Positions 4,432 through 59,105 of a stretch of 64,000 nucleotides of DNA are shown here, piece by piece (positions within the stretch are counted from its first letter, which is position 1; every line of letters begins with the position of its first letter). Location: NCBI GenBank assembly GCA_002224055.1, contig AZLU01000141.1, positions 1-64,000 of the forward strand, read 5' to 3'. The notes under the pieces are model-generated. The model worked only from the letters and a program-made list of their open reading frames with translations. It was not told the origin of the DNA and searched no databases. The DNA comes from Pezizomycotina sp. ARF18 (taxonomy: Eukaryota; Ascomycota). Both the position numbers and the translations under genes were made by a program.

Positions 4432-7400
4432 GTATCCTACCAGCGAGTTTCCACTGGATAGTTTGAATTGTCATCCGGCGTTGGAGATATTATCCAACTT
4501 CTCTCTTCTTGCTTGTAATAAATAGTCCCTTAGTGTATATTCTTATCTTCGTGATCTTTCTAACTGGCAATACAAATTATCTATAGAAACCTATTCCATT
4601 TCTGAGATAGATTCCGATAAAAGTGATATTCGAAATGTTAAAACTGGTCATTATAGAAAGCGAGGTTTTCCGGCTCGTACTCGAAGTTATGATATGACGA
4701 TTAGTATCTATCGCCTTCGGTGTGCTATTGATACTTATGACGGAGAGTAAGGAGATGTTGAAGATTTTATGCGGATTTGGCGTTCGATCAGTACTGCTGT
4801 GGTTATCAATCGATGCAGACTGCTGTTACCTTTATGTATGATATGAGGCGGATAAAATGGATTTAGTGTTCCGCCATTTTTTAATAATTTATCTTCGTCT
4901 TCTTATCCTGTTCTTACAACTATAACTAATAAGCTACTACGCACTATACGATCTTTTCTTGTGCGAATGAATGTTCTGTGAAGAATGCGAAAAGAATTGA
5001 TTTTTGATCTCATTGTAGAGAAATAGAAAAAAGAAAAAAAAAAGGAAAGAAAAGAAAAATATCATTGACCGTCTGTGGAGAAAGCCTGCATCTGCATACG
5101 ATGTTGGGACTTCCGCCTCGTTATGTTCTCGTCCGTACCCTTGCGTTTAATAAATAGTCCTATCTCTTTATTGCGAGCAGTCCTTAATCCTTAATATATG
5201 AACCTTCCGTTCTCGAGCTCGAAAACACGAATCGTGAATACAAATATAAGGTTAGGAGAAACCGAAATTAGAAATATGTACGAGGCATAAGAAGGCAGCA
5301 CCAAGTATGATTGCCTTTGCTTTTATCTCAATAAGAGGTAAAGCTTCTAACGCGCTTAATATGTAATCATTGTCGTTCCTCTGGTGGTTAAGGAAGGGGG
5401 GGGGGGCTACGAGTAAGGAGATCTTGAACATGCTATGATTGCTGATGTGCAGTTAGTGTTGCCGTGATTATCACGCGTCCTCTGTCGGTGTTTAATAGGA
5501 TTTAGGAATTGGTTTTTAAATAATGCTATCCGGCTCGGACTATTCTTCAGTCCTGTGATTATGAGCTGTGAATCGACGATTGCACGTTTCGCGTATGGGA
5601 CGACCGGCGTGTTGTTAATGCTTTTCTTATCATGGCTTGCGAGTAGTTTCGAGGGTTAACTTTGGCAGCTAGGCTATATAAAGACCGTCATCCTGGGATA
5701 CTCATGGTTATGAGTGGCCCGCTGTTGCGGTGTTTCGGTAAGTGAGCGACCAATATGGACTGCTCTGAGAGGAAGCATGCTGTGAGAAGTAGTTATGAAG
5801 TCAGTCGTCATCATCTTTGAATTGGATATATCTAGAATCCCGGTGCTTCGACTTTTTTTTTTTTTATTTAATATCTTTTGCTCTTAATCGTCCACTAATC
5901 GCTATAGGTCTTCTGTAGGGCTGTAAATGTGTGCTAGTTGTCCTATAAAGCGAAAGGGTGGGAGATTCACCTAATTATATCACTGGGTGGGATAGCTTCG
6001 AGATGTGGGAGCTTAAAGTAGGTCACCGACAATTGCTATGCGGCCTTCTCCGTTGTGGTTACGACGTTACGAATACTGATCGATCCTTATGTTCCTTTCT
6101 TTTCTCGGTGTTTATAAAGGGAAGTTAAGAACTGCAAATCTTCTAAGTGCTTTAATATTTTATTCTCGTCAGCTTTATGAAAGGCGAGCTGCAGATTTTT
6201 GAAAGATACTATCTGCTCTTCGGTGTTATTCGGTGCTGCTGTGATTATTGCTTGATAGTCTGACCATTTCGGTGTATACGGAGCGTCCATTTCATTTTTC
6301 TTTTTACCTGTATATCCTTCCGCGGCGAATTGAGCCCTGATATATCATGACATCGCGAAAGGACTGATTTCAATATATCAATACCAAGACTATGGAATAG
6401 TTGTGAGAGGGAGTGGTTCATCCATAGCTATTCTATAGGCTTTGGATGTGTGCTAGTTATTCTATAAATGGAAAGACTTGGTAATGCATCTAGCCATATC
6501 GCTGGGGAAGCTTCGATGTGTGAAAGGTTAGAAGCAGATTTCTGAAAAATGCTATCCGCTCTTCGATCTTCGCATCCGTCAGCGCTGCTGAGATTATTGT
6601 TTCTTGAACAGATAAGTGCCGATTTGGTGTATGACGGGTAAAGAGGAATGCCTACTCTTTTATCCTCTGTGGCATGCAAGCGCTAGCAACGTGGCTGGGA
6701 CCCCACCTTATTCCACACCTCCCTTTTGTCTTGCTTGTAATGAATCATCCTTATATGTGTACAGCCATCTTTCAAATTGAAACAAATAAATATCTATTTG
6801 AGAAATCCAACCTGGAAACAAGTATGCGACGTGCAAAACGCTATATCAAATATCGGTCTCCTTCGCTGTTACTTCGATATGATGGTGAAGAAAAAGGGTT
6901 CCGAGCGCTTAATATGGTTTCATTGTAGGTATTTAAAAATGGAAAGTAATGGATGAATTTTCGAAAACGTTATACGGGTTTGGCATTCGGTCAGTGCGAC
7001 TGATTATATTTCTTCTTTTGAGTCGGTGTTTTTATAAAGGGAAGTCGGGAATTCTGAATCTTCTAAGCGCTTTAGTATGTCATCCTGTCGACTTTTCCGA
7101 AGAAACGTTATGGAAGGCGAGCTCCAAATCTGCTCTCCGCGTCTGTTCGGTGCTGCTGTGATTTATCATCAGTGAGTCGATTGATGGTTGAACCATTCGG
7201 TGTATGAGTAGTGGCGTCAGTTTCATTTTTCTTTTTACGTATATCCTTCCCCTCTACGTCTTGACAGTGCACCTTTGTAATTAGACTATGTGAAGAATTG
7301 AACCCCGGGATAATGAGAGATAACACGTCCTCGCGGAGTCCTTTAAATACTAAGAATATGGAACATTTTGCAAGAGGTAGCAGTCGTGGGTAGTTATGTC

Positions 7401-8100
7401 GTCAAGCCTTTGGGGTCTGGATTGGAATATATTTGGGCGCTTTTTGGAACTAGATATTTCCTCCCTTTTTTTTCTTCTTTTTGGATGGTTCATTCATCGC
7501 TATACCTCTTCTGCCTGGACTTTGGATGTGGGCTGGGTGTTCTATAAGACGAGAAGCTTATATTTGAATTCGTCGTATCAGCTGCGAGTTCGGCACCCCA
7601 GAGGTGAGAAAGCAGGTTCTGAAAAATGCTATCTGTTCTTCGCATCCAGTTAGCGCTGCAGCGATTATAACTCAGTGCATGGTCTGTGTTCATTTGGTGT
7701 ATCACGCGTGGACTCTTTGTGTTTAATCATTTTTATCTCGGGCGCTGAAACATCGACATTTGAACTCTGCAATTAGATGTTATGCACCTCGGGCAGTTGT
7801 CGCTTCTTGCATATTAGTGGATATATAAAGCATTGCAGCTAACGTCGTTTTTATCTGTGGGTTGTGGAACATGCAGACGTAAGTGATAGCGGTTATCGTG
7901 GTGAGAGTTTGCGGATCCAATAGATGATAACCAGGAGCCATTGTCCTTCTTTTCATTGCAGAGTTTTTTTTTTTTGAAAAGGAACGAAAATTTTTTTTTT
8001 TTTATAACTTCGCTACCCTTCGTTCTACGCTTCGGATGCGGGCTAGCAGTTCTATAAGTTTTCGTAATCACTCGGTACTCAATCGGTTTATTAAGCTAGA
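4432..8100. repeat. Desert 1, diverged direct repeats, block A
   Basis: No gene is seen. The + strand is visibly richer in G and T than in C and A. Several word groups recur in the same order with many differences. TCGGTGTTTATAAAGGGAAG occurs at 6105 and, slightly changed, at 7023; GGTGCTGCTGTGAT at 6233 and 7149 (916 apart). A GGATGTGTGCTAGTT-like word followed by TTCTATAA occurs at about 5921, 6440, 7520 and 8030 (spacings 519, 1080, 510). GAAAAATGCTATC occurs at about 6545 and 7622. An older pair lies at about 4745 and 5410 (AGTAAGGAGATnTTGAA). This is a decayed tandem array with higher-order structure and no open frame conserved between copies. Confidence 0.6.
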
Positions 8101-11100
8101 ATGGTGATCTTTTCTATTATCAGGCGAACTTTTGACATCGGGACATATTGTTTGACGTTTTCGATCGGGTGCCGTGTTAGCGTTTCGAATATGATTGATA
8201 TGCAAAAGCGTCCTACAACTGCGATCGTTCTTACTAGAAGCGTTTTGAGGATATGCACAGATCATGGAGGTCTGCTGGTGGAAGTCATAGCGGTTATCGA
8301 TGCGGGGCCTTTCGGCTGCAAAAGATTCATGAGCAGCCTCTCTTGTTTTTCATTTTTAATGGAAATATAAAGATAAATAAAATAAATAAACATTTATAGG
8401 GTTTGCTCCGCTATCCACGCTCTAGAGTAGGTAAGTAGTTCTATCAAATGACGATTCCATAGTTGAGTTCTTCATATCAACGAAGAGATAGAATTTCGAG
8501 ATCTCTGAGATAAAAGGACTGGTGGCGGTTTTTCTATCGCGCTGGTCGTCATCAAAGCACGTGTAGCTTTAAGGGTAGAATGAAATCATGATCCGGGGTG
8601 CCGAGTCGCCTTCAGAGTGAGATATCGAACGCGAAGTCATCCAGGCGTTATGGGAGTGGTTATACTTCCCCCTTGGTTCACCAAGTGGAAGCTTTTTTCG
8701 GTTTCATGGTATATGTTGAAGAGAAGGGTTGCGAAATATGTAGTAGGAATGTAGCAGTAGACCCTCTGATCTCTGTTTTAGCTCTTATGGGGCCGACGGT
8801 GCGATCTTTCAATGGTCTATTTTATCGTACGGGAGGAGCGAAGCTTCTCCTAGTATTCAGTTCTACGTGCAGTGTAGTATGAACGGAAGATGCCAGAGGT
8901 TTCGTGGATGGGGTTTTGACACTATATATACGGCATTAAGTCGACAATTTTTTTTAAGCATGGCGTGATCGCTGGTAAGAGCTACTCCCTGATGTTAATG
9001 GTGTTACTGTCATTATCAATGTTGTGGAATTCTGATGAATGATTTGCTTCTAAGCTAATATTTCGGATATTGAGAGATAGCACTGTAGTTCATCCGTATG
9101 GGTCATCGTGGTAGACCGCGAAGCGCCTTTCGTTACAAATATCGAGAGAAATGGGCTCATCTTCGTGTTTTTTTTTTCTTTTTTTTCGTATCTTTAGCCA
9201 GCTTAAGCTTTAGGAGCTGAAGGAGATGCGGTAGTAAATGTTCCTTAGGGGTCAGTTGTATGTAACCGCTGCCGTTGGATTTACGCAAGCTTTTAAATAG
9301 CAGTGTTAGGGAACTTGTTGACGATCCACTGAGGAGCATTTTGCCGAGGTGGCTTGCGGGATATCATTTAGCTCCTCCAAGCGGTAGAGCTTTGAGAGTA
9401 CTACGTGCTATCGCATAAGCGAAAGGCAGCGCTATAGTAATGAAGTGAGGTAAGTGAAATGTGGTGATATAAATCCTCTGTCCGCGCCGCGCTGTGGAAG
9501 TAAAGCCTTCCTCGTCCTTTATGGGCGAGTTTGAGAATGAGGTTGTGAGATATAAAGCGTGCACTTGTGGACCGCATTGCGTACTCTAAAGAGGAAGAAG
9601 TAGTAGAAGATCTGTATAGTTTTTTTGTAATTATATGAGGAAAAAACCTCTTTACCTCTACCGGCTATCAAGGGAGTCAGTTTGCCAAGAGGCACAGGTA
9701 GAGAAAAAAATTCAATCAATCAATCAATCAATCTCTGTGCTAGTCTGTATGATGTAGCCGAATTTTTGTTTCTGAATTTTACTTTATCGCGTCAACGGCA
9801 GGACAGCTCGTGACTTTTATGCCTCGTTTTTCGTCGCGAAAGCATATATCGCTTTTCAGTATGAACTAATGAGCTATACAAGGAACATAGGATGGCTACT
9901 TTGATGAGCTATGGTATCCAAGGCGTTGCGGGCGTTGTGGAAGGAGATATAATTGGCCGGGGAGGCAGCTTGAGCGGAGGAAATACAAGTTCCCTATTGT
10001 CGTTGACGCAATCCTGGTAGAATCTTAGAGATACGGATTGTGAGGTATGGCCGGTAGACGTCGAAGTACACTTTAGTCTCTGTTCTAGTACGTATCGGCA
10101 ACGCGGCGCCGGGTTTCTTAATTTGCTGTATCGCGTGACGGATTTGAGTGTCCGGGCTACAATGCTTTGGAAGCGATGCTATGAGATAGCGCTGCGAATA
10201 TGCCGATGATTTCGATACTATGGCCTTCAGGGACCTCCAGTGGTAATGATTTTTTTAAAGGTTTGTATGAAACAGTAATTGCCTTCGGACTTACGTGGGT
10301 TTCGTACGGCAGTATCGCTCGACGCCACCGAGCTAACTCTGCAAGGGACGGCTCTTTTGTTTTCTTCCGGTATGTGGGGTATCGGTTATCCGGAAAGGAT
10401 TTTATAAGACGTTCGTGTGTTTGAACGGGGGATATGGGATGCCGGTAAAGGTGTAGTAAGTGATCCGTTGGTCTTATACCTCGGAACGGTTAACGAACGC
10501 TTGTGCACAATCAACGTTTATTGTTTATATCCCTCCCGCCTTGGAAAGGGTCATGCGGAGTGAAAATAACTTTTTTTAACGAGATATAATGGGTGGCGCC
10601 GCATTCAGCAGTATCTAGGAATCCGTTATGACAATCGGAAAGCAATGGATTAATACTCTTTGTGGTACCACAGTATGATCCTGGACCTGTTTGGCGATAG
10701 CATTTACGGCGATAGTTCTTCTTTATGCGGGGGATCGCTCCACTACGTGTTTAATGTACACCGGGAAGAGGATTGATATCTAAGGTTTTTTCCTTTCCCC
10801 CTAGACGTAATGCAGTATGATTCGATCGTCACTTGCTCGCGGTACTAATCCTATGCGATGGCTTCGGCCGGTTGGAAAAAGTCTGTCTTTTTACTAATTA
10901 TAATGCAACTGGGCCTTACTAAGGATCCGGTTCACATAATTTGAAGAGCAATATCTGGCCACGGCGTTAAATGGAATGCATGAAGCGAAGATATCCCTCC
11001 TTCTGTGGAGCCCTATTGGACCTCGACAGAAGTGGCGTACTGCAAAACATATCACGCAAATGGAGAGGCATTTGCGTCAGTGTACTAATACTTAGTTAGA

Positions 11101-16200: not shown

Positions 16201-18000
16201 CGTCACCTCAATAATTCGAGACAAGTTACCCCTTATCCAGCACTAGTTCTAAGTAGAATGAGATATCAGACGGGATGACAAGATTCTTAAAGGAATCGTA
16301 GATGGCATTTGTCAGCACTGGGACCGTAAAAATTTAGGCAAGGAGAAAAAGTATCCACAATTTCTTCGTCGAGATAGTTCTCCAAGTTTCCCACTATCTC
16401 GGCCCCTGTAGCACTTCGTTGGTTTGTTTGGCTTTCGAAAGTCGAATACTGGCTTATCAGCTAGTGCTAATGGTTGATTATTTCCCCGAGGGCGCTTTCC
16501 TATGTTTTCGTTGGAAATAGTATCAAGGTCATTGTTTACTTCATCGACGTTCTTTCTCGTAGATACTTTATACATCCAAGTCAATATTCGAGATGAGCTA
16601 TCAGATCTCCAGCGCTTTTTTTTTCCCTCACTACACAAGATGGCGCGTATAACACAGGAATGGTCAATGCAACAATCTATCAATTCTGGTCATATTGTGC
16701 GCTAATACCATAAACTTGCGCGAGGGAAAAAGTATCAAACGTGGCTTGCAGTATGTAAGTCCCCAAGTCACTCAAGTATCTCAAGTCATGTTCGTTGCCT
16801 CCCTCTGTTCGAAAAGCAGGCTGATAGCCGAGAGAATTTGACTCCTAACTGGGCCACAAAATATACGCCAACTGATGGGTTTCTGGAATAATACTATATT
16901 TACTTAGAAGAAGTTATCGGATTATCTTCCTCATCCTTTCCTTCCTCGTCGTTAAAACCTTGTATACAACATAAAGCTCTCTCTTCAACGCCTTCAAACC
17001 GATCTGCCGGTACCCCAAAATTATACTTGAATTCCATCGTTCGCCCAGGCTCATATGTCGAGTCGCTGGCAACTCTCCAAAACTAGCCATCAGAGAGTTT
17101 TTGCCTCGGGCGTAGCGGAGGCGCCATATGTTGCAGCAGCCTATCGCGTGGGGAAAGTGTTGAACAGCTATCTCCGAGTACTCGAGTACGTCGATCTTCA
17201 GATTACTCTAGTATCCCAAATGCACCTACAAAAATCTCTTCTACTTAAAAGCTGAATAGCAGTATCGAATTGTGCTACTGAGGAGCAGCGTAAGCGTAGG
17301 GTCACAGTGTACTCTTCTAGCGCGTATCATTTCTTCGTTTCGGCTTTTCGAAAGTGGTGTATATCACCTCTGCATTTTTGAGATGAGCTATCGAGCCTGA
17401 TCGGCACCTCTTTAGGCACAACGAAGAGGGCGTACACAAGGTATAAGAGTAAGGCATGGCCTATCGGCTAGGTGCATTGCCACGACGTCGAGTAGCAAAC
17501 GGTTGGCGAGGAAAGAAGATATCAGGGTCTCTTGGCTCCGCAAGTGATCAGATACTCTATTATCACGGGTGGTGCGTGATTGATTTTATTCTGTCTTAAA
17601 AGTTTTAATAGCAACCAAGAGACTTATCGTTCGCGACGTTGAATGTAATATCAGATTATGGCTTGTGTTTAGACGGGATGTTCTCGAAACATTACTATAT
17701 GCCGAGCTTGACCATCGTTGATACTTTGAAGTTTATGGAGTTTCTCCGAGATGAGTTACAAGGAAATATCGCTGGTCTTGACGACCCTTGGTAATAAAGA
17801 CGAGGATGTGCAGTCAAGAAACTAACGGATTATCGTTGGGGGTGCCTGTAGCCAAACATCAAAGAGCACAGCGAGGGAAAGCATCAGAAATTCCCGCTTC
17901 TTGATAAGGCTTCAGTCCAATATCCAATATCCCCTCCGCTCGTTGTGTTTGTTTTGAAAACTTAGGGTAGATGCCTGTAGCCTAACGATTTATCGCCGAT
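16200..18000. repeat. Desert 1, diverged repeats spaced about 370-395, block B
   Basis: Two word groups recur in direct orientation. GAGATGAGCTATC and close variants occur near 16258, 16590, 17382 and 17748 (spacings about 332, 792, 366). GCGAGGGAAAAAGTATCA-like words occur near 16337, 16720, 17500 and 17873 (383, 780, 373). Doubled spacings suggest a unit of about 380 with one copy too worn to see. No protein is recognised. Confidence 0.5.
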
Positions 18001-18239
18001 AGCGATCAGAAAGCATAGGAGTATTAAAGTGCTTTATCTTGCCGTTGCAAACTTCTTTCACTACGTTCTATTTTGACATCGTATAGTAGTGAATCTTATT
18101 AGAATAGTCCTCCCTATCAACCAGACCCTTGTCTCACTCGAAAAATTATATGAGGAGATTTTGTAGCCTGAAAGCTATTTATGGAGAACGGTGAGCGACT
18201 CGGGAGCGTAGTTTATATTGGCCTCAGAACTTCCTCGTT

Positions 18240-20760
18240 GCATTAGCCTATGTTGCAGGACTGGCGCCTCTTTTTCCTTTTCGCAGAAATATGAAGTGGC
18301 GCGCCTGGGTGTAGTATGATACTTTCCCTATTGTAGGTCATTATTTCAGTTCGCGAAGACATCTCCATTTGTGAACTTCTTTTAGAAGTTTGCTATCTGG
18401 TCACGCCGGCGTGTATAGATCATTCTGTGTCGCGCTGAGGCCTTTCTTGGAGCGAAAAGCTTATGAGTCGACTCTTGCCATTTTCCATTTTGCGGAAATA
18501 CGAAGTGGCGAGTCTCTCTGTATTACCATTCTTCTCATGTCGCGAATAGTAGTCATGATTTCATCAGCAAGAGACCTTCCCTCTAGATCCTCAGAAAATG
18601 CCATACGCCGTCACCAAAAATTCTCAATGTCGTTGCGCTTTGCGTCTGGATAGCTTCTCGTAGCGACAAATTTCTACTCCGAACGCAGCGTCCTCGTCTC
18701 TCCTTGAATGAATATATAAGACGAAATGCACATCGAAGTATTGAGCTACTCTTCCTATCGCGGTTGCTTTCTAAACCCTCAAGAAATATCGTTTTATGGA
18801 AATACACGTGCATCAGATCTTGAGGAAGTTAGTTAATCCACGCTCGTTAGTACGTAGTATATGCCCCCCGCTTTGTGGATCTTATGGCGAGAAAACCTGT
18901 GGAGTAACGCCAACATCCCCTTTTTTTCCATTTTGTGGGAAATATGGGGCTTCTTATATCTCCATCCAGGTACCAAGTTACCTGAACCGCAAGAGCCTTT
19001 GAAAAGCTGTCTAAGAGCCTTTAGAAAGCGGTGCGTCAGCGACTCTGATGCCGCAAGATACCGCTGCTCGTTCCAATGTTCCTTGTAACGAGAAAACGTA
19101 TAGATCGAAGCCCGAATATTTTCTGCGTCTTTTGTGGAAATATGGGCCGGCTGCGAGCAGGTAAACAGTGCTAAGATAACTCTACTATCATTATTCCTCC
19201 CTGCTCATTGAATTTAATCAAAAGGACCTGTACATTACTTCTTGTAGCGACAGGTTTTACTCAAAACCCGCTTCGTCTTCGTTACTCTTTTTATAGAAAT
19301 ATGAGCCCTTGTACTCTCCAACGTAGTATTATACCTTCTCCTATTGCAGGTTCTTCTCTTAATTTATAATGACTGTCTCAAGGTTTTGCTAGATCCTAAG
19401 GGAGCAGGATGAGCGGGAGACCCCGTAAATGTAAAATATCGATACGCTTCGAACCCTAGTTGTAGTAATAGTCTATACGCTATTTCCAGCATCATTTTTC
19501 TCTTTCGATGGAAATATGAGGCAGGAGTGTAGAGCCGAGCATAAAGCTACCCTCTTGTCCCGGGCTCCTTCTGGACTCTGATCTCGTTGAGAAATATCTT
19601 TTGTAGGGAGATAGCTGTTCATCTGATATCGATGTGGGTTAGTCATCCCGCATTCATGAAAATGCAGTACCGTCTATCCTTCTGCGCCTTTTAGGCAGAA
19701 ATTTTATATTCCCGGACCGGCTGCTTGAGATTTCTCTTTTTGTGAAGATATAAAGCTGTGCGTATTTGGTATTATCAAGATACGTCCAATATCGCCAATT
19801 CTCTTTTTCAACTCATTGAAAAATATTATGCTCCAACACCTTTTCAAATGCGATATCAATATTCCACGAAATTAGCAATACGCGTCAGATCTGAAGTAGC
19901 AGTAATAATACCTTCCCCCCCCCCTCCCCCCCGGGACACGATAGGCTATACAATGAGGTCGGCTTCATTTTTTTCGTTTTTCTGTAGTAAAAAAATATAT
20001 AGCTAGGTTCGCAGCGACGTATTAACAATAATACTCCCTATCACGCATCCTTTTAACTGGTAAAAGATTATGTTCCTACACCTTTTGGATGCGATGTAAG
20101 TTTTTCTATAAATTGTGCGCTTCGGATCGAGAAAGTAGCACTAATATGCATTTCTGCCTCAATGCGACGGCTTATACAGTAACGCCAGATTCGGCTTTTC
20201 TTACTCTTGTGGCCATGAGTGCACTGTAGGCGGTGCGATAAGATGCATTCCGCTATCGCGGCTCCCCGTCTGGCTTTCACTCATAAATATCACGACTTAT
20301 TTTTCCAGCCGGATCCCCAGAGGGCGTTTTATGAAGCCCCGGCCTATAGCCACGAAATATCGTTCCCTTCTTGGACTTATTGTAACGAGAAAAAACTTAT
20401 ACCGTGAACATAGTTCCACGTTCTCTTTCGTGGAAATGTGGAGGCGGCATGTCAGTTTGGCGTGCCGATTTACATCCTCCATACCCAATCTCCTCAGCCG
20501 ATCCGTCGAATATTATGATTCGAGATTCTCTTCCCTTTAGATCGTTCAAAGCTATTTTTACACACCCCGGTTTCAAGAGCGCAGTATCCTTCTTCGACCT
20601 CATCGCTCGTAGCAAGAGGCGTTACGTGCCCCCCCCCCCCCAAAACTTTGCACTGTTTTGCGAGAGATATGATGCGGGCATTTTTGAGAGGATCATAAAT
20701 ACTATCCTTTGTTGTCGAAGACTTTCGTCGTTTGTACTGTATGAATGGCATTGACGTCTC
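18240..20760. repeat. Desert 1, T/C-rich diverged repeats, block C
   Basis: A GGAAATATG-type word preceded by a T-rich stretch and followed by a G-rich tail recurs near 18287, 18496, 18940, 19138, 19297, 19512 and 19699, and again near 20433. Spacings are mostly 160-220 bases with a doubled gap of about 444. A second word, TGTAGCGAGAAAA-like, recurs between them (about 18659, 19085, 19243, 20382). Pyrimidines dominate the + strand, opposite to the G/T bias of block A. Long C runs lie at 19915-19931 and 20629-20641. No gene is recognised. Confidence 0.55.
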
Positions 20761-26270: not shown

Positions 26271-26298
26271 AAAAAAAAAAAAAAAAAAAAAAAAAAAA
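26271..26298. repeat. Poly(A) tract of 28 bases at the left edge of desert 2
   Basis: An uninterrupted A run at the change from gene flank to repeat desert, the counterpart of the tract at 4408-4431. The exact length is not to be trusted. Confidence 0.8.
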
Positions 26299-28800
26299 GA
26301 TTAGCAAGCCTAATATAAACAAAACATGGGTAGGTATCGTCCCCCGTCTCCGCCTATTCCTTCCGACTGGTTACCCTGTAATTGTGTACTTATTCACTTC
26401 CTCCTTTTGTACAACTCCACCGAAATCATACATTGCGTTTTGAGCTTCCCGGCAGGACGGTAAGTGGGTTCGAGTGTTACATGGCATTTCCCCAGCACTG
26501 CAGTGTTTATGAGCGGCTGGAATTAAAGATCACGATATTATTTTAGAGAATATACAAAGATTTTGCGATTTTTTTTCCGAACCGTTCTTTGATGAGCTGT
26601 TATTGTTATTCTATTAGTTTATATTTATTCTCAGTTATACAAAGTAGATAGAATAGCAGTGGCGTGACCACGATATTCTGGAAATTTTTACGAAAGTCCA
26701 TGCATGGATGATCCGTGGACCTCTCAAGTAACACTGAGGCTCTCAAAAAAATGATCACATAGACTTAATCTCCTATCTTAAGATATTTACGGTCCGTCGC
26801 TTGGAAAGCAATCGTAAAAAAAGATAAAATCCTCCTTTTAATTTTGATATTCATTGATTATCACCGACCGATACGCAGAAGCTCAAGTTAACACTAACAA
26901 ATTTATCGAAATACGAGATTTATTGATCATCAATTACTCTAGGCGCCTCGCAATTCTTCCCTATTTACTGTATCTTTTCACGCCGGTAAATAGATATTTC
27001 CCGTTGTGGAGATTTAAACGAGAACCAATATATCAAAAAAAAAAATTTTTTTCCTTTTAATTAAACGTAGTGCTGTTCACTCGCCAGATTACAGGTCGCA
27101 TGAGGGATGAAACTATAATTTTGACGGGTAATTTAAAATTAATAGATGCCCTTTTTGCCCTGGGACTCGGGAGTTATTGATGAGATCATAGGCGCTGTAT
27201 ATTATTATTTACCACGGCTATTACCGGAACAGCAACTGTCAAAACTGCAAACGCTTTTTTCTTTTTCGTTTTTTTTTTTTTTTTTTTTTTGTTTTGTTTT
27301 TAATGAAACACGGAATAGTAGAATGGCTGGTAGCCAATACATTCGATATCTGTGGATGTTCTAGAGAATTCTTTTTTTTTTCAAACGTATAATAATATCC
27401 GTTGGATGTTTGTCGTCCTATAGAATTGACAAGAAACCTTCAATAACCTAATAGGTTTACGTTCTAGAAACGGCGAAGGTACATTGAAAGCCTTTTCGGA
27501 TCTGGAAGAAGTTTAAATTCCTAGAGTTTCCTCACGTGCAGGTACTTTTTTTTTCTTCTTTCGATTCTTCGCATATCGGAGCAAGGGGAAGAGTTGCGCA
27601 AAATGACGACAATGGTGCATTTTTGCCTCGTGATCCATAAAGAGAAGATGCGCTTTTGGATTCAGTAGCAAAAAAAACGACCACGGTGGAAGGAAAGGAC
27701 CGTATTTTTCGGTTGTTGCGCTAATTATAATATTATGTCCAGTATCAAAAACATCTTTGCCTCAATTAATAATTGATATTTTTGACCTAGGAGTCTAGGA
27801 CCCTTAGATTTCACATCAATTTCAGCAACTTCTACCAGTTTTAAAAGATTCGCAATTCTTAAAACCGGGTAGATATAGTACGGTGCAATAGTCGATGGAT
27901 ATTAAGGGTTCACTGGTGTTCTAGACATTGCGATATCCGCAAATATTTTTATATCGACGCAGGGACTGAGACTACGAAAAATCAATTAAGGACCTAAGGT
28001 GGTAGTAAAAAAAATCAGATAAATAAATAAAAGAAACCGCTGGAAGAACCCTGAATTTAATTGCTGGCACTTTAGCTACTCAATTCGCAAACTATTAACA
28101 TTCCATTAAACAACAAAACGCAAACATCACATCAACCCGCCTGCTTATTAGCACATTTATCAATGATCACTATACAGCGTTACTTTTAACTTTGACTACC
28201 CGTATTCTTTCTTGCGGACTTAATTAGATTCGAGGATATCGAACTAGATATGCACTAATCACAACAAGAACCGCGTGTTATATCTTGATAAGAGATGCAA
28301 ATTTGCACTATGAACATACCATTATTTACTAAGACCCACCTATGAACTGCTGATAGGAGGATCTCGTCGCTTCACTCTACGTAGCGCGCAACAACCACCT
28401 TATAGGATGCGTAGACCTATCAAAGACTTCTCTTACGGTCGTTTTTGCAAGGTCAACAACGTCCGTACGTTATATAACCGCACAGGTCGCAAAATTGTTT
28501 TTCGTGGGCTGATATAAGAAGCGCACAGCGTCACGGCTCTCATAGCGTTCAGCGGAGACTTAGCAAGCCGGGAATGATAATGGGGTGAAGATCTGCGTAG
28601 AGAATAAAGTGTACGGTGGCATGCACCATTCCCAGCGCAGAGTCATTTCATATGATCAAGACTCGCCTACCTACCTCAAGATAAACGCTCAACGAAAGAG
28701 CTTCAGACGATGTAGATCAATGAAGATCCCTTGATCATATATTTGACACTGAAATTCGCAGGTCTGATGTGATCGCCTGGCAAGGGAATCTTCCACGATA
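26299..28800. other. Desert 2, left part, no gene recognised
   Basis: About 2.5 kb of A/T-leaning DNA without a recognisable protein, RNA gene or mobile element. A T run interrupted by single C lies at about 27270-27300. I see no clear repeat period. Confidence 0.5.
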
Positions 28801-28989
28801 GGCGCGTGATGAGACTACTAGTAGGAGAAGTAACCAATCAGAAACATATTTTGCGAAAGAGGGCGTTCTCAGAACCCGACATAAACAAGAATGAATCTCG
28901 TCGATTCCGAGAAACTATAGCAAAGTTCAAGTGGGTTAAGGGAACATCGCAAACATCTCACGAGACCAAATTCCCAACATCCATCCATA

Positions 28990-35090: not shown

Positions 35091-35093
35091 CCT

Positions 35094-35157
35094 TTTATTT
35101 ATTTATTTACTTATTTGTTTGTTTGTTTTGTGTTTATTATTTATTTATTTATTTATT

Positions 35158-35201
<44 letters not shown>

Positions 35202-35206
35202 TTTTA
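35094..35206. repeat. (ATTT)n microsatellite
   Basis: About 110 bases of nearly pure TTTA repeats with a GTTT-rich interruption near 35115-35135. It sits close to the left end of the block E array. Confidence 0.9.
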
Positions 35207-35299
35207 GAAAATGCCGCTGTAAATGTTTCCAAACACGATATTCGTCTTCCACGACATTAAATTTTTTTTTTTTTTAGAACGGTATTTAATTCTTCAAGA

Positions 35300-41200: not shown

Positions 41201-42760
41201 CGCCACAGGTTTTCTCAGGAGGGAATATAGCAGCAAAGTACGAAAACCAAGTAGTGTATATATCGCATACTAGTAGCTCTCAAAATCGCGTTACTTACAA
41301 CGTGTCATAGCACTTCTCCCCCCCCCCCCCCTTCCATATTCCATATACAGCAGATAAAGCGTAAGGCAGAGAGCGCAGCGCCATAGTATTGTCTATTTCT
41401 ATGAGGAGGAGTAGGATTTACACCGTATATCCCTTATTCGCCGAGTCCGACGCTCTTTATAATGCCCCTCCTTAAAAGCATCGCTGATGTGGTTCGGGTA
41501 CGATAGTAATTCACTTTCTAATGATAGGCCATACTACTAAAAGTTCTTCACGCCTAAATGTTACACCGCGGGTTACTTGGGATGGAGGATAGTAGCAAAA
41601 CCCTTAACCGTAAACCTGCCGTCCACATACTCGCAGGCGGCGCCCAAGCTCGTACGACGTTACGGGCGTAGAACCAGCAAGTCCACCAAGAACTGATAAA
41701 GCGCAAGGTAGAGAAAACAGTGCCCGCTCCATGGTACTTAACAAATCGCGCGCTGGGAAAGCATAGCAACTGTAAATTAATGATTTCTTATATTTCCTTT
41801 TGTAAAAAAAAAAAAGCTTACTACATCATCTCCTAGTCCATTGAGCCCCTCACCGCATATAACAGGGAATGAGCATCTTTTGAAGATCCTCAAGGAAAAT
41901 AGCATAAGTCACTGAAACGGACAGTGCGATCTTCAAAAAAAAGCATAGGCGGCCATCGGATGCATTATAGTATTCCTCCAATCCCCTTCTCGAACAGCAT
42001 CACCAAGAGGTGACGGGATGATAATCCGTTTTCACAAGAAGAAGTACAACCACAACATACATCCCACTCACAGAACTCCGTGTTAGACCACCATTATAAG
42101 GGACCTCGTTCCCCCTCCATGTCTAGAAGGGGACCTCAATCGCCTCAAAATACAACAATCAACCTCCAATATGCATTCGGTCGCTCCAACAGGTATGAGC
42201 CCGGTAGACGTTCTACTGCCAACTCTGACTGTCATAATGTTGCGATGCATTTTTTAATTCCTAAAAAATTTTTTTTGACGGAGCACGTCATCACAAAAGC
42301 GCATATGCACGTCAAAACGCACAGCATCAAAAACGCATATGTATAAAAGCGTATATTTTCGCTCAACAAATCTGTCATTAGCTGTCGTTCGCTATCGCTC
42401 GCTGTTACCGATGCATGTTTCATATCCCCCCCCCATCTTCTTTAAAGTATCGCTGAAGCGTTCGAGGTCGAACGATAGCTTTCTTACGACGACGGATCGA
42501 TAATCACTCACACTACTAAAGTCTTTCACGTCTAAGGTTGACACAACACCACAGGTATCAGGAGGGAAATATCAGCGGAAAACCTAACAAAAAGCCCAGA
42601 TCGGGTCCACATACCAGTTAGCCCTCAAGATTGCACCTCGCTACATGCTAGCAAATCATCAAACTTCTAGAAGCAAGGGATAAAGCTTAAAGCGTGAGCG
42701 CCACCACATTATAGTACACGATTAAGCGCAGGACGCAAAAGCGTAGTAATAGTATTGTGA
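35300..42760. repeat. Desert 2, long degenerate tandem array, unit about 250 or 350 bases, block E
   Basis: A chain of about 20 or more diverged copies in direct orientation. The order of landmarks per unit is: CATACTTC; a GGATAAAAGC-like word; CTCTTCTCGAAAA then CATCGCTGA; GATAATTCACTTTTCC; a TACTAATC word; CACGCCTACCGTTAA; then a TATAGCAG-like word. CATACTT landmarks fall near 37878, 38231, 38729, 38990, 39246, 39498, 40101 and 40453, with a weaker one near 39743. Spacings are therefore near 250 or near 355. Long units appear to contain about 100 extra bases with a second TTCTCCACGAGAAG-like word and a TACATAT word. The first kilobase is more worn. C and A exceed G and T on the + strand. 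Confidence 0.7.
42084..42409. other. Extra segment of about 325 bases inside a block E unit
   Basis: The unit near 41040-41115 runs directly from an ACATACATCCC landmark to ATGCTTCATATC and CATCTTCTT. The unit starting near 42058 has the same flanks separated by about 325 extra bases, ending at ATGTTTCATATC near 42413. The extra piece is unlike the array. It carries ACGCATATG and GCGCATATGCACG-like words at 42299-42345 and a GTCGTTCGCTATCGCTCGC stretch. I see no clear terminal inverted repeats or target duplication, so an insertion is only inferred. Confidence 0.4.
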
Positions 42761-43971
42761 ATAGTGTTTTTATTTCTTTTTTTTTAATACTTCACTACAT
42801 ACACCTCTCTGTATCCATCATGTCAACGGACAGGAATTTACGGACTTTAAGATAAACCAACATGGACAGAAAATAATAAAAATCGAATGTAAACAGACAG
42901 TACAACCTTCAAACATGCAAAAAACATTGAAACAGAAAATACTATATACATAAAAAAACCAACAAAAACAACACAGTACAAGCAAGCAAAATATTATACT
43001 AAAACAGCAGCAGTATAAGGAAGTGGATTATATACCCGTAAACCATTAATGTTTTTCCTTTTGTGTAAAAACGACGCGGGACAACCATCGTCGTATAGTA
43101 GTTAAAAAAAAAGGACTAAAAAATAATATAAAAACAAACATCTTCAATTCCCACTTTCACATCCCGAAAGTCTTCAACGTGACCAATACCGTAGTGATGT
43201 AAGTGTAATTCTTTTCTCTTTGATTTTTTGTGCGTGTGTAACAGTAACCCTAATATTACCATCCCCCCATTCTCACCCCTCCACATTACAACCCCCAATA
43301 TATATATAGATAAAAAAAGGTTATGAAATAAAAAAAAATAACCATTTTTAATAAACCCCTCCCAGAATGATGATCCCCGTTTACAACTATTCTACCAGTG
43401 AACTAATTCCATAGGAAAAAGTTCATGTGGTGGAAACAGGTAAAGAGTTATATAGTGTTTGTAGGAAAAAAGAAAGAAAAAAGCGGTAGGAAATGGAAAA
43501 AAAAGTTTCCTCCAAATAATAGAAAAAGACAATCGAAAAAACAGTGAGAAAAATGCACAAGCGGAAATAAAGAAAATGAGAAGGAAAAGGAAAAGACTAG
43601 AATGACAAATATTGTGTACAATTTTTTTTATCTTCTTCGGGGAGAAGTAAGTGAGAGAGTTCCCCTCATTAGGTGTGTGTGCAATAGTGAAAGTAAAATA
43701 TAACCCGCCAATTTTCTCCCCTTTTGTTTTTCACCAACTGTACACCCGTTCGTATAATATAGAAAGTTATCTGCAGCAAAGTGAGAAAAAGAATATAATA
43801 GTAGTAAAAATAGACCTTTGCAGATATTACCGTAATGTTCCCATTTTCCCTTTTTCCGTATAAAAATCCCCGCAATATATTAATGAATAAAATCTACCAA
43901 ATTACTTCAAGCAGAAGCAGTCGCAGCCTCCGGGCAGACGCAGGGACGCCTCCTTCGCTTCAGTAACGCGG
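42761..43971. other. 3' flank of the PWWP-domain gene
   Basis: A/T-rich spacer with many A runs. No gene is recognised. It separates the end of the block E array from the minus-strand gene and probably includes its 3' UTR. Confidence 0.5.
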
Positions 43972-50150: not shown

Positions 50151-50950
50151 GACTGCTTACGACTTCAAGTATCGGTTTCCGGCGTTCGTTCCGCTTTGAG
50201 ATGGGTATACGTATTTTAGGGATATAGATTGGAATTGGTGATCCGTACTAATTTACTAGGGCGGTTCTATTTCCTTTTTTTCTTTGAGTTATTTTTTTTT
50301 TTCTGTTGAAAATACTCTAGTAGGAAAATTGCAGCCCAGAATTCTTGCAGCAAACAACATCGCAAACAACCAAAATTGCCAGCAGTGATATCTTCATATA
50401 AGACTTTACTCTTTCAAATTAACCTACCATTGGATACGTACTTAAATTCAGTATTCGGGTTTCGAATCGCTCATTAATTATATATACTAATAGCCTGCTA
50501 AGGTAAACTACGATGGATATTAGGCTCCATAATCTCGTTCGAGGCAACATCCGGAGCGTGAACAGTGTATAACTGTTCGCGAAGACCGACGTAAGTTTGA
50601 TAAACAGCGTACGTCGAGTCTCCTATAACTCGAATTTGTGTAGATGTAGAGGTACTCCCATCAAGGCCTCATACATCTTACACTCGACTTTTCAACATGA
50701 CGGAGATGTTATAAATGATATACGCTCTACTTTATTTACCATTCCCTTGGTAGTCCTCAGGCATATTTTATCTACGAACTCACTACAAACAATAGATATA
50801 CAGCCAGCGCAAGTAAAAGAGCGCAAGGTTTTTGGGATGCTTCTACAATCGTGTCGAATATGTCATAGAGCGGTTTTTTTACTCCTGTGGGAGTTGTACG
50901 AATGTTATCGGTAGCGCCAATCGCGGAAAGGGATAGGATAAAGCTGCTGG
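50151..50950. other. Desert 3, left edge, no gene recognised
   Basis: Mixed DNA with T runs at 50275-50303. No protein, RNA gene or clear repeat unit is seen. Confidence 0.45.
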
Positions 50951-50959
50951 AGGAGGACT

Positions 50960-51640
50960 ATGGGATGCCTCGGGGCGAAGGGCGGGCTTATAGGGAAAAC
51001 GTAAGCTGAGAGTTGGCTCATTGCGTTTGATACAGAAAGGAGTCGTTCCGAATGTGCTTTTTCAAAGAGCGTCGATATGATACGCCTACGCCAACATCAT
51101 CGTCGAATCATAACACTAAGTATTCCAAACAAAGTCGATCTATTTACTACCTCCCCGAGTTAATGCAAGCAAGAATGGCCAAAGCATACATATCTACTAC
51201 CATGATCTCCAGAATTGCAATTTTACGTGGACGTGACCACTAACACTAACACCGACAACGTCTGGGATAAAGTCGATGCGGAGAGCACAAGATGCATTCA
51301 GGGAGCAGACGAATAAATGATAGGAACGTACGCTGAAAGTTGGGTTCGCGAACTTTTGATACGAAAAGGAGCCGTTCAAATCCGCTTTCCGGCGACGCTC
51401 ATATCGTAGGCCTTACCGCTACGATTGCCCTCGAGTATAGCATTAAACTAAAACAACTTCATCTATTTAGCTGTATATCGCCCTAGGCTTAATGCAACTG
51501 ATGGCGGGAGGGATACAATGGCTATTAATTACGACTCCAGGAGCTTTAACCAGTTACGCGCCCCCCGATAAGTAGCTGACAGTCTCAGAAAGGTTCACCG
51601 TAGATAGCCCGCTCGGCCGCAATTCTATAAGCATATCAAT
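50960..51640. repeat. Desert 3, pair of diverged units 329 bases apart, block F
   Basis: The stretch from about 50975 matches that from about 51305: GCTGAGAGTTGG against GCTGAAAGTTGG, then GATACAGAAAGGAGTCGTTC (51029) against GATACGAAAAGGAGCCGTTC (51358), then ATCTATTTA and TTAATGCAA words in the same order. Spacing is 329. No coding frame is shared. Confidence 0.55.
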
Positions 51641-53300
51641 CATTGGGGTCAAGCACAATGACCTTCTCATCGCCGATGTGATAGTAAAGTCCTACACGAG
51701 GCCCTGAAAGCACGTGATAATGTTTACTCTCAGTTATTGCTTCTATAAAAGGCCGTTCGTGTCTATCGATCGACCGAACATAACCAGTAGAAAGTGTATT
51801 AAGCCGTGTCCCAGTGGAAATGATATCAGTTCCGAAGAGTTTTTGTAGGGCCATGCATACGTAATTGAGGTTACACGACGAAATTGATCAAAATCGATCA
51901 ACCCCAAAAGAACCGAAACATATCAATGCGGATTTCCCAAGGTCCTTTAGAAACATGACCGTGACGTTTTCAAGTAGATTGTAGCCAGATTAAGCAGTAG
52001 CGACACATGGACTCGGTGATTTCCAGAAAAATTCAAACCAAGTAGCGACATCGGGGAAGACATAGCATCGCGGCTAACTGTCAAACTTCTAGCGAGCGAC
52101 CATACCGCGTCGAGGTGGAGCTCAAGACGAAAACGGATTGGGCTGGAAACATAGCAACCGGCCTTATCGTTCTCCAACGGCCATAAAACATTTGATCCTC
52201 TACTTTATTTTGCCAAAAGAATCTGGTCTTTGTGGATATCAAGGTGCGCATCCATCGCGACGCCGGAGACACAAAGGAGAAAAAAAGTACCACGTCGACG
52301 GCGTTCCATAATTTCAAGATCGTGCCATCGATGTCTCTCTTTGAATAGCTCGATATTGCCTTCTACGTAAATTACGTTAAATTCACCAATATCACGCGCA
52401 GGTTCATGGCATGATATCGAAGTGGTGAATTAAGGGAAGCAACATTTCCCCCGGGGAGGACAGATAACTTTAAGTACATTGTCGCCCAACAATATAATTT
52501 CCCGTGGAATAAGAACGAGTCGGGATAAATGTGCAATGTGCTCAACTCGCGAATCCACGATAGCCCTAGCCGGGAAGATCGTCTTGAATGATACCACAAA
52601 AGGAAACAGCCCATCATATTTGGTTCGCTGAGCTTAGCGTGAACGAGATCAGCCGGGTTCATACTGCCAACCAACAAGGGCCTTAGCGTTCATGACAGGT
52701 TCTAGAATCCAAAAAAAAGTATCCTACAACTCCATAATGACCTGCCATCGACAGACCACGCAACTCCAGGAACGAAATCATAATGATCGTTGTAGGCGCT
52801 TCGTCAAATAGCGCCTGCCGGATAAACGCAATGGTGTCTGTTTGCACCATAAGGCTCGGATTCATCTCTCGCCGACTACGACGTTCGATAACCATTCCAT
52901 TCTGAGTTATTGCTTCCGTAAATGCCCGTATTGCTAAATCTAGATTCATAGCAAGACTGTTAACTAGGGGTCGACTGAAACGATATCAGGTACGAAGCAG
53001 TAACCAGACGTCACATAATTAAATTTACTCGCAGTAGCGATGAGTTCAGCAGGACTTGAAACGTATCGAGGTTGATTTCGGCCATGATATAGAAATGGAT
53101 GTAAACCTTTCGCGTAGACCTAGTCTTGCCATATCTCCGGAGATTTTCGGTCGAGACTAGCGTAGACCGTAGCCGGCTTAACAAGCGAAACGCATAGACT
53201 CGTTGATTTACAGTAAGTTCAAAGTAACAGTGAAAACCGAGAAGGCATAGCATCTCGACTAGGCACAAAAACCTACAGCAAGGGTTATACAGGCGTAGAT
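51640..53300. repeat. Desert 3, block repeated about 1.15-1.19 kb apart, block G
   Basis: AGTTATTGCTTC occurs at 51732 and 52905. CGAAACATATCAATG at about 51914 matches TGAAACGTATCGAGG at about 53056. ACTCGGTGATTTCC at 52012 matches ACTCGTTGATTTAC at about 53197, followed in both by CAAA(C/G)...AGGCATAGCATC-like words. Spacings of 1.14-1.19 kb resemble those of block D, though the sequences look different. Confidence 0.5.
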
Positions 53301-55800
53301 TGTGCAAGTTCAAAGCGAAGACGTATTGAAGGTAAACATATGAAAATGCTCCAACTTATATTCTTAGACTCCCTAAGAGGGTCTCGTAGAATCAGGAAAT
53401 TTGCTTCCTTACCTACCCTTGGATAACAATCATGTTCAACATGCCTCCGTTAGAGGCCATACGGCACCTATTCGGTCATGAAAGAGGTAATGTATAACTC
53501 GTCGTTCACACGTTTCTGACAAAACAGGGCGGCGACTGCTAATACATGAAGCAAGGATGCAGTCAACTTAACCCCTGGAACTAAATTACAAAGGACCACT
53601 ATGGATAATACGTCTAAAAAGAGCCGTTGCTACATATTGGCCAGTACTGATCACCCCTCAGAGCAATGTAATCGCTCCCAGGTAACGATGGCGTATAAAC
53701 GTAGAACTTTATTTAGCGCCCTCTGGAAACGTATCTTCCATAATGAGAATTGCGGACTGTAAAAGCAATGCGGAGACCCGAATATACCCTTTATGAACAT
53801 TCACGCTCGCTCACCGAAAGGCGCCGCAGCTGCCATACCCGTGTCGGGTTCTGACCCTGAAGCAGTTAAGCACAAACGTTTCTACTATCGATCTGTTCAA
53901 CTTCACTTCTCTATTTTGCGCCACACAGACCGACGATAAACTCGTTGGAGCTGGTTACTAGCGATAATTCTTATGTCTCGAAAGTTCGGGGTTGCAACAC
54001 GACAGATATCTTTCCGAATCTATTCCTGCAAGGGGCTATGGAGCATAACGGGGTTCCTAGATTCATTTTGCGGTTCTGAACGATACGAATCGCCACCGAC
54101 CATAAGTGAAAAGTAAATCAATGTCGAACAGCACAGTAGCCGCACATAATCCTTACAGGAAGTCGTCGCCAAGTTATCGAGATTGCACAGGTGCTTTATA
54201 GGGCATTTGCAGTTAAATGTCGCACGGTGCAGTCTATATAAGCATAAATTCCATGATGCGCCACCGATAGGTTTTGAAGTTACTCCGGCTGCTAGCCGAA
54301 TCTGGTATAGACGTATTTATTGACGATTCTCCTGAGGTTCTGCATTGCATCGCAGAAAAAAAAAAATAGTTTCCGGAGGATTCCAAAACGGCAAAACTAT
54401 CACTTGGAAGTCAATGTCCTTATATAGTGAAATTCAAACAAGGCTTCATGATCACGTCTACCAGGCAAAATACCGAATACCATCATATTTAATTCGCGCG
54501 AATCTCCTTGTCTAACGTGAATAACAGAGTAACAATCTTCTCCTCACGATATTAGAGGCGCGAAGAAATCGAAGTGTTTAACTCGAAAATATCAGGTTGT
54601 TATATAAAGTACGGTAAAAAAACGCAGACAGCGACTAAAGAATACTATCAATAGAAGTAAACTACGTCTCCTCAAGATTCATGAATCTTTATAGGCTCCT
54701 GGGCATAAAATGGCCCTAAAGCAGGCCCTAATCAGGACAAGTGCAATACGGAAGTACCTGCTTATAAAGGGAAGGCACGAGATAACTATTAGGCTTTTGC
54801 TAGTTGCTGAGATTAAACCACAGCATACAGTTTAGTTTTATAAAAAACATTACCGTTTGGGAAATCAGTACTACTACGGGTTATAAGCCATATTGACCTC
54901 CTTGAAGACTACGGCTTGGGTAACCCATAGCTTTCTAGAGTGACGCTGGCAAGTCGATCATGATAAGTGATTAAGACGCAAAACGCGAGATGGTTAGCAG
55001 ATATCAACCTAAGTAGGGGCTGTCGTCTGCGACTGTGTTAGGGGATACGTCCCCAATACTATTAACTCTCAGTAATTTCCCTGTCATAAACCCTCTGTTC
55101 ATAACCCCTGAACTACAGCAGAACCTACAGGTGCATAGTAATCCTTCGCAAACGAGAAATGATAGCTTTAGCCCCACCCCGCCTACTACCCCCGCTAGCC
55201 CTGTATTCTCTTATAACCGCGTGACCTTTACTCTGTCATTATTCCAGCCTCGCCAACAGCGGCATATCTTCTTTCTCTCTTATTTCTATTCACGATTTAT
55301 AACGCCCTACGCGAGAATAGTCAGGTTCGGCTAATGAGATATAGAAGAAATGAAATCCGCGAGGCGACGAATACCCTCACCATACTTTCATTGCAAATGG
55401 AGCTTCAAAACCTTTCTGCGGATATCAAAACGCACTTCCCCTTACGTAAAATTGAAGCTATGATTTAGCACCCGAACTCTTTTGTGAGATCGTCACCATT
55501 TTCGAATGGACACAACTGAGCAAACGCACGTGTCTCTGATAAATCTTAGCTTGGTCTAAAAGACCCTTATAACCAGCTTCAAGTGTATACCGAGGCGCAA
55601 TTAAATCTGCTGGGGGAGAAAAAGTATCTCAACGTGGTTTGGGACTAGGTGATAGCAGGGTGCTCGCCAAGGTGAAGTACGCCTAGAGCATAACGAAAGT
55701 TATTGAGGCAAACTTCGAGGAAGACGACAAAGATACCATGATTTTCAAAGCGCTGGTGTCTCCGATATCCGCGATAATTCCCAAATGATCTCAGGGGGCT
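53301..55800. other. Desert 3, central part, no gene recognised
   Basis: About 2.5 kb of mid-GC DNA with no recognisable gene, RNA or element. An A run lies at about 54355-54366. Frames such as 55035-55334 show no family motif. Confidence 0.45.
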
Positions 55801-58210: not shown

Positions 58211-59105
58211 AAGCCAGATCATAAAACGAAAGAAAAGAAGAAAAGCAGCCTCAGCGCGATGTCATACTACTAGTATTTCAACTTGACATCGCTGGGAATA
58301 TCGCATATCATTCTACCGTTTTCCTCGCAGAGTTTTTATGAAGATCCCTCCACGCCGAGTGTGATAATTTAAAGGGGATTGAGGACTAGGTTCAAAAACA
58401 TATTTTGTGCCCCTTTCTAACCGTTCTCGTCCTCTTGAATATTTTTACTTTTAAAATTCGGAAAGGGCAAAAAACGAAGACTGGGCTCCGCACACACGAG
58501 ACTAAAAGTTGCCGGGAAGAAAGTATACAAAGAAGCCGTCGGTAGGACAACATATAGAACAGCGGAACAACGGCAGTCGTGCCGACTCACGAACTACGAA
58601 CGACTAACCGATCGTTGAGCAGAACAACTCCCTAAAATTATACGTTTCACGAGGATCAAAACAAACTGCGGAGGATTTATACAAGAGAAGAAGTTCACGC
58701 ACAAGATACTCATCATCGAACACCGCGGAAAACGAATCGTCCAATAAACATCGAGCAGCCTACTGTGATTATACACTGTTCGCCGATGCTGGATCATAGA
58801 AGGGTTTTTCGTTCCGTTTAGTTGTGGGGAAAGAATATGATATTAATGTCTCTAGTTTTCGTAACTTTCTGTTCTTCTAGGAAAAATATAAACTCTGCTT
58901 TTCTCTAAAGCGTGCAGGTCATTTATAAAACCTGTTTCCTGTAATATTTTTCTACCCCGCCGCTGTTTTTCGTAGTCCGCCGCTTAAAATGAAGTATTAG
59001 AATATAAGTTTTTCCTTTTCCTTTCTTCTTTTTTTCTGTAAGAATATTGATGTAGCGTTGAAAGTGCTTCCGTAAGAATAGTAATAATGAATATTAAGTA
59101 AGAAT
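58211..59105. other. 3' flank of the CPSase gene
   Basis: A transition from repeat desert to T/C-rich DNA (58850-59040). Nothing coding is recognised. It likely includes the 3' UTR of the minus-strand gene. Confidence 0.45.

What the first reader, a model, noticed from the sequence alone, without database searches (positions are those of the whole stretch)
4432..58900. About 40 kb of gene deserts made largely of very old tandem repeats with no known family
Three deserts (about 16.5, 16.5 and 8.7 kb) separate single housekeeping genes. They are not A/T-collapsed like repeat-induced point mutation blocks, show no transposon protein remnants, and contain direct repeats with landmarks in fixed order. 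Non-coding satellites dispersed between ordinary genes at this scale are unusual for a filamentous ascomycete. This is the best candidate for an undescribed feature of this genome.
Basis: partly seen in the sequence, partly recalled or inferred. Interest (0 to 1): 0.7.

Follow-up and report, generated by a model that had tools for sequence, protein, structure and literature searches.

The report
Fossil tandem arrays filling fungal deserts
Long gene-free stretches between ordinary fungal genes turn out to be built largely from ancient, worn-down head-to-tail DNA repeats, seemingly of a different kind at each spot, so these stretches probably grew in place by local duplication and not by jumping genes.

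Summary
The three deserts (D1 4432-21000, D2 26000-43500, D3 50200-58900) carry 38 direct against 3 inverted local repeat pairs. An iterative profile scan covers 7511 of 16569, 10768 of 17501 and 5615 of 8701 bases (56% together). Extra copies lie 1502 to 3 on the same strand, and three shuffles of each desert give nothing. Four multi-copy arrays lie at 4.4-8.9, 17.9-20.5, 35.5-42.9 and 55.5-58.3 kb. The largest has a 248-253 bp period and 19 recognised copies. I found no RIP, coding signal or RNA fold, and no transposon protein in ten ORFs tested. Relations between arrays are absent or weak; genome-wide BLAST found no other place for them. So they do not look like one dispersed satellite family. 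Most likely they are fossil arrays, amplified in place long ago, then decayed largely neutrally. In 274 kb sampled, such arrays appeared only in this window and gene-free stretches of 14 kb or more only on its contig. Unexplained: T+G excess on the sense strand downstream of three of the four flanking genes. Organism, transcription and chromatin state are unknown.

The parts
4432..8930 (+). Array D1a: diverged head-to-tail units (strongest lags 928, 1082, 1601; landmarks 240-730 bp apart), starting about 0.5-0.7 kb past the last coding-like segment of the Mex67-like gene (4432 is the edge of that scan; one search puts the left end at 4150)
   Evidence: 12 fragments at E<0.05, all + strand, 4486-8517, three of them training copies; 8 copies
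17932..20528 (+). Array D1b: about 9-10 diverged units of about 200-250 bp, ending about 1.5 kb from the 3' end of the CAP-Gly gene
   Evidence: (lag 205, z 6.1); the strict convergence kept only 3 copies
28751..31499 (+). D2a: old two-copy tandem duplication, about 1.2 kb per copy, 62-71% identity
35500..42945 (+). Array D2b: about 250-bp unit, 19 copies recognised over 35823-42035; interrupted by a dispersed element at 42187-42367; ends about 0.6-1.0 kb from the 3' end of the 43.9-kb gene
50700..51615 (+). D3a: two-copy duplication, lag 327
51616..53695 (+). D3b: two-copy duplication, lag about 1.19 kb, 67% identity
55452..58339 (+). Array D3c: units about 240-320 bp apart, 6-7 copies, ending about 1 kb from the 3' end of the carbamoyl-phosphate synthase gene
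9601..9733 (+). Dispersed retroposon-like element with a (TCAA)n tail, 4 other places in the genome at 88-91%
32161..32338 (+). Dispersed ~178-bp element, unclassified, at least 9 other places at 82-87%
32579..32901 (+). Dispersed element with a tRNA-type B-box-like stretch (SINE-like), 1 other place found at 87%
   Evidence: B-box reading from recall
34189..34356 (+). Dispersed ~165-bp element with ends TGTCGT...ACGACA and, by eye in most of 19 rows, a 4-bp target duplication; 25 other places at 87-97% (lower bound)
42187..42367 (+). Dispersed element next to a primer-binding-site-like stretch (Copia-like remnant, recalled), 4 other places at 86-90%, inserted into array D2b

Best explanation
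The deserts are mostly fossil tandem arrays. At several separate points a few hundred bases of intergenic DNA were amplified head to tail in place (by replication slippage or unequal exchange; this step is inferred). Homogenisation then stopped, and the copies decayed by point mutations and mostly 1-3 bp indels until only a profile recognises them. Amplification and decay made long gene-free stretches without transposon expansion; the absence of RIP marks here fits the survival of old duplicates. Shown: the tandem, same-strand, non-coding nature of the repeats, their decay, and the lack of any strong relative elsewhere in what could be searched. Inferred: the duplication mechanism, neutrality and age.
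For: Same-strand bias 38:3 pairwise and 1502:3 by profile with empty shuffles. Regular period of 248-253 bp in D2b. Converged array profiles hit nothing outside their own desert in the window below E 0.6, and models R1 and R2 hit only their own block in 249,758 held bases. Gap lengths divisible by 3 are only 22 of 160, and transitions about equal transversions, 501:475 (3 of its 17 pairs aligned to themselves and add no gaps or mismatches). No coding-like segment above 12 in D1 and D2. Excess ORFs over dinucleotide shuffles mostly vanish against order-2 to order-4 models. No RIP index. Few retroelement matches: 5 for RVT_1 and 2 for rve in 46.4 Mb, lower bounds. In D2b, aligned identity does not fall with distance between units (0.48 at distance 1, 0.45 at 11), so no sign of recent turnover. 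Conserved-column counts of D3c (68; 64-88 simulated) and D1b (11; 4-13 simulated) fit neutral star-like decay. A dispersed element has since inserted into D2b.
Against: D2b has more conserved columns than simulated neutral decay (28 at or above 0.9 against 8-20 in 12 simulations) and they cluster along the unit, which could mean constraint. Observed alignments have fewer usable columns than simulated ones (241 against 250-258; 272 against 297-307; 138 against 205-221), so the simulation is not a full match. All 4 D1b profiles find a weak match at 8.31-8.37 kb in D1a (E 0.001-0.009), and D2b and D3c profiles find each other weakly (E 0.001-0.05, mostly on opposite strands), with 2 comparable hits in shuffles: full independence of the arrays is not proven. 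About 44% of desert bases are not explained. No young multi-copy array was found in 274 kb. Nothing explains why this contig is special, nor the T+G excess.
Confidence: 0.6

Rival explanations
1. The arrays are functional: parts of long non-coding transcripts or chromatin-organising stretches running on from the 3' ends of the flanking genes, kept by selection on short motifs.
For: All four multi-copy arrays end within about 0.5-1.5 kb of a gene's 3' end. T+G excess on the sense strand downstream of the Mex67-like gene (z 5.0 for G over C, 8.0 for T over A), the 43.9-kb gene (7.2, 6.3) and the synthase (3.9, 6.6). D2b has more conserved columns than neutral simulation.
Against: The fourth flank (CAP-Gly gene) has no such skew and neither do the 8 other 3' flanks sampled; one of those is skewed the other way (z -2.2, -4.1). 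Fourfold sites and 13 intron-like gaps of genes show no T+G excess. No unusual RNA fold in the units tested. With both ends of D1 being 3' ends, the placement is weak evidence.
Confidence: 0.14
2. The arrays are satellites derived from transposons (tandemised elements) whose source has decayed.
For: Known elsewhere: tandem arrays of truncated Helitrons (passages of PMC12628747). Five dispersed elements sit in D1 and D2.
Against: Genome BLAST gave no dispersed relative of a unit (low sensitivity). Helitron_like_N gives 0 matches, but the control genomes gave none either, so that is uninformative. Retroelement matches are few.
Confidence: 0.13
3. The arrays are decayed tandem gene families (pseudogene graveyard).
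For: Next door, 69-77 kb holds inverted and direct local copies that overlap coding-like segments.
Against: Gap lengths, codon scores and GC of about 0.40-0.46 against 0.50-0.63 in genes speak against it; 10 desert ORFs gave only one weak sub-threshold Pfam match, E 0.07.
Confidence: 0.05

Closest known systems
Satellite DNA
   Same: Head-to-tail non-coding units of a few hundred bases in arrays of kilobases
   Different: Not homogenised, a few to about 20 copies, found at one locus each so far, between housekeeping genes
Local sequence duplication in intergenic DNA (PMC3188502, abstract and outline seen)
   Same: Intergenic sequence growing by local duplication and then diverging
   Different: There enhanced similarity up to about 50 bp in fly regulatory modules; here units of hundreds of bases in multi-copy arrays over kilobases
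RIP-mutated repeat blocks of ascomycetes (recalled)
   Same: Gene-free repeat-derived blocks between genes
   Different: No TpA excess or CpG loss here
Transposon-derived satellites such as tandem Helitron arrays (PMC12628747, five passages seen)
   Same: Decayed tandem arrays
   Different: No element of origin found

Membership tests
Satellite DNA | Head-to-tail tandem organisation | tested here: met
Satellite DNA | Homogenised copies (concerted evolution) | tested here: not met
   Aligned identity about 0.45-0.51 in D2b, flat with unit distance; pairwise matches in the deserts 58-83%
Satellite DNA | High copy number or presence at many loci | tested here: inconclusive
Satellite DNA | Heterochromatic state | not testable with these tools
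   No chromatin data
RIP-mutated repeats | Raised TpA/ApT, lowered (CpA+TpG)/(ApC+GpT), CpG loss | tested here: not met
   TpA/ApT 0.92-0.94, second index 0.98-1.07, CpG o/e 1.11-1.17
Minisatellite | Units of about 10-100 bp (recalled) | tested here: not met
   Lags of about 205-320 bp and more; TRF finds none of the arrays
Decayed tandem gene array | Residual reading frame, gaps in multiples of 3, coding composition | tested here: not met
   22 of 160 gaps; no coding-like segment above 12 in D1 and D2 (that script stopped before giving D3)
Transposon graveyard | Transposon proteins or many genome-wide relatives along most of the desert | tested here: not met
   10 desert ORFs without a Pfam family over its cut-off; only five short dispersed elements, about 1.0 kb in all; not an exhaustive six-frame search
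Tandem Helitron array | Helitron source in the genome | tested here: inconclusive
   0 matches, but controls gave 0 too

The most novel reading that the evidence does not exclude
The arrays mark a special kind of chromosomal stretch downstream of housekeeping genes: repeatedly and independently amplified, strand-asymmetric DNA read through by transcription, in which array-like structure and not sequence is what is kept. Each gene would have its own private array, evolved in parallel.
Probability: 0.1. Interest if true: 0.75.

Novelty: new variant of a known kind. Interest (0 to 1): 0.45.

Why it matters
Large gene-free spaces in fungi are usually put down to transposons (recalled). Here more than half of three deserts traces to local tandem amplification that an ordinary repeat finder missed because the copies are too worn. 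If this is common, much 'unique' intergenic DNA is unrecognised fossil repeat, and the iterative profile scan with strand bias and shuffles as controls is a cheap way to measure it in any genome.

Tried and rejected
Rejected: RIP blocks. Structured RNA (the fold of a 2-row alignment proves nothing). tRNA genes (bacterial-type scan). Hidden coding: the ORF excess over dinucleotide shuffles (31 against 16.5, 36 against 19.0, 17 against 9.4 ORFs of 80 aa or more) falls to within 1.3 sd of order-2 to order-4 Markov models; the count of 100 aa or more in D3 stays 1.7-1.8 sd high. So it mainly reflects rare stop triplets. Intron-like patterns are not enriched. A shared motif across arrays: G and T runs stood out most; other words were driven mainly by D2b.

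A 302-bp tandem pair at C60:110836-111418 first looked like a fresh duplication. All 21 differing columns are gaps, with no substitution, which points to an assembly or read-error artefact; I do not use it as evidence. Transcription-coupled skew as a general rule failed on the wider sample.

Dropped rows: one gene-free interval with many withheld bases (C1 about 88.9-96.2 kb) was left out; three of 17 pairs aligned to themselves; flanks with runs of N were skipped. The scripts stopped on errors; one search was rerun, the missing D3 line was not. Copy numbers per tile were listed for 6 of the 16 intervals.

Papers: listings showed nothing like this by title and abstract start, which says little about print because only open papers are held and most were not opened. 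Abstract and outline of PMC3188502 and five passages of PMC12628747 were seen.

Full report
SETTING. The window is contig 141, bases 1-64000, of an unnamed 46.36-Mb genome in 408 contigs. Genes named by Pfam: a TAP_C (Mex67-like) gene whose last coding-like segment ends at 3.7 kb on the + strand; a CAP-Gly gene at 22.0-24.6 kb (weak matches) and a gene at 43.9-46.2 kb without a Pfam match in the three pieces tested, both -; a WLM-domain gene at 48-49.5 kb, -; and the carbamoyl-phosphate synthase large chain at 59.3-62.8 kb, -. Beyond the window come HEAT-repeat segments with a weak SF3b1 match and ribosomal protein P0. The window holds the strongest of 11 CPSase_L_D2 matches in the genome.

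THE OBSERVATION. A whole-window self-comparison gave 42 pairs, against 0-1 in five shuffles; the 20 strongest are all direct and within 2 kb. In 4-kb windows the deserts gave 38 direct and 3 inverted pairs; direct pairs cover 9472 of 42771 bases. Pairwise comparison understates the case. A scan in which each 200-, 300- or 500-bp tile is turned into a profile and iterated inside its own desert covers 7511/16569, 10768/17501 and 5615/8701 bases, with 315:0, 973:3 and 214:0 extra copies on same and opposite strand, and nothing in three shuffles each. These counts add up over overlapping tiles. A gene-free control stretch on the same contig (77.5-91.5 kb) was 13% covered with 7 extra copies in all. 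The 6-mer lag spectrum, which uses no profile, agrees.

ANATOMY. Four multi-copy arrays (D1a, D1b, D2b, D3c) and three old two-copy duplications (D2a, D3a, D3b) make up the repeats. D2b is the largest and most regular: start spacings mostly of 224-274 bp through 37.6-40.1 kb, 19 copies at E <= 0.001. With the D1a model and filters off, 12 fragments at E < 0.05 (three of them the training copies) lie between 4486 and 8517, all on one strand; next comes a 36-base match at 4400 (GC 0.08, opposite strand, E 0.06), and nothing better than E 0.7 farther right. D1b is less secure at strict settings: 3 copies against 9-10 and up to 11. Outside their own desert the converged profiles found nothing below E 0.6. 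When arrays are compared block by block, D1a profiles find no other array, all 4 D1b profiles find 8.31-8.37 kb in D1a weakly (E 0.001-0.009), and D2b and D3c profiles give scattered hits to each other or D1b (E 0.001-0.05, mixed strands), with two comparable hits in shuffles. So strong kinship is excluded, an old link between D1a's right edge and D1b is not. An element with relatives elsewhere at 86-90% identity sits inside D2b, so the array is older than that insertion.

NATURE. No RIP, no coding signature, no Rfam match, no unusual folding of the units tested, no Pfam family over its cut-off in ten desert ORFs. Five short dispersed elements account for about 1.0 kb. Reverse transcriptase and integrase matches in the whole genome are 5 and 2 (lower bounds). 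C-5 DNA methylase gives 5 matches on 3 contigs, so a methylation system may exist; I did not test whether it is of the RIP type.

HOW IT WORKS. The simplest account is in-place amplification followed by decay. In D2b aligned identity between units is flat with distance, which fits an array that was complete, or homogenised, before decay began; identities this low are lifted by alignment, so the profile results carry the weight. Twelve D2b units align over 238 columns with 30 conserved in 90% or more, against 1-6 in eight alignments of shuffled units. Conserved-column counts in D3c and D1b match simulated star-like decay; D2b has an excess of conserved, clustered columns, a modest hint of constraint or uneven mutability. 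The mechanism of amplification is inferred. No clear example of a young array was found.

HOW SPECIAL. In 274 kb sampled (104 kb of this contig, 170 kb of three others; 0.6% of the genome), 16 gene-free intervals over 3 kb were scanned. The three of the window are 39-55% covered at E <= 0.01. Of the other 13, a neighbour at 72.5-76.4 kb is 65% covered by two- and three-copy matches, one on contig 1 is 25%, one on contig 60 is 14% (the artefact), one on contig 1 is 13%, two on this contig are 7-8%, and seven are 0; shuffles of 3 of these 13 also gave 499-688 covered bases. The bias to direct pairs is general: with coding masked, 30 direct and 2 inverted at E <= 0.0001 in 90,509 bases of this contig, and 12 direct (one the artefact) and 0 inverted in 131,328 bases of the others, so the density, not the direction, sets this contig apart. 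The longest gene-free stretches (18.3, 19.3, 14.1 kb) are all on this contig; elsewhere the maximum was 7.5 kb, stretches at sample edges being cut.

UNEXPLAINED. Over about 5 kb downstream of three flanking genes the sense strand has G>C and T>A with z from 3.9 to 8.0; in D1 the excess runs to about 15 kb, past the detectable array. None of the other nine 3' flanks shows both, and one shows the reverse. Fourfold sites and intron-like gaps do not share the bias, so plain transcription-coupled mutation is not an easy answer; an old T+G-rich unit amplified beyond recognition would do, but I could not show it.

VERDICT. A new variant of a known kind.

Noticed in passing
4432-15500, 38000-43900, 51000-59000: T+G excess on the strand that continues the sense strand of the flanking gene, not shown by nine other 3' flanks; a further stretch at contig 96-99 kb, downstream of the ribosomal P0 gene, looks similar on the per-kb profile of that call.
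   Followed up: partly
34189-34356: A ~165-bp dispersed element with TGTCGT...ACGACA ends and 4-bp target duplications, 25 other places at 87-97%: a MITE or solo-LTR-like element in a genome with few retroelement matches.
   Followed up: partly
L038:836-1418 (C60:110836-111418): Head-to-tail 302-bp pair whose 21 differing columns are all gaps: probably an assembly or read-error artefact.
   Followed up: yes
L026:5236-5881 and L027:397-1038 (C141 69.2-75.0 kb): Inverted, 60% identical local copies overlapping a coding-like segment: probably an old local gene duplication.
   Followed up: no
window 4432-58900: Stop triplets, TAA above all, are rarer in the deserts than dinucleotides predict, which inflates ORF lengths.
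   Followed up: partly
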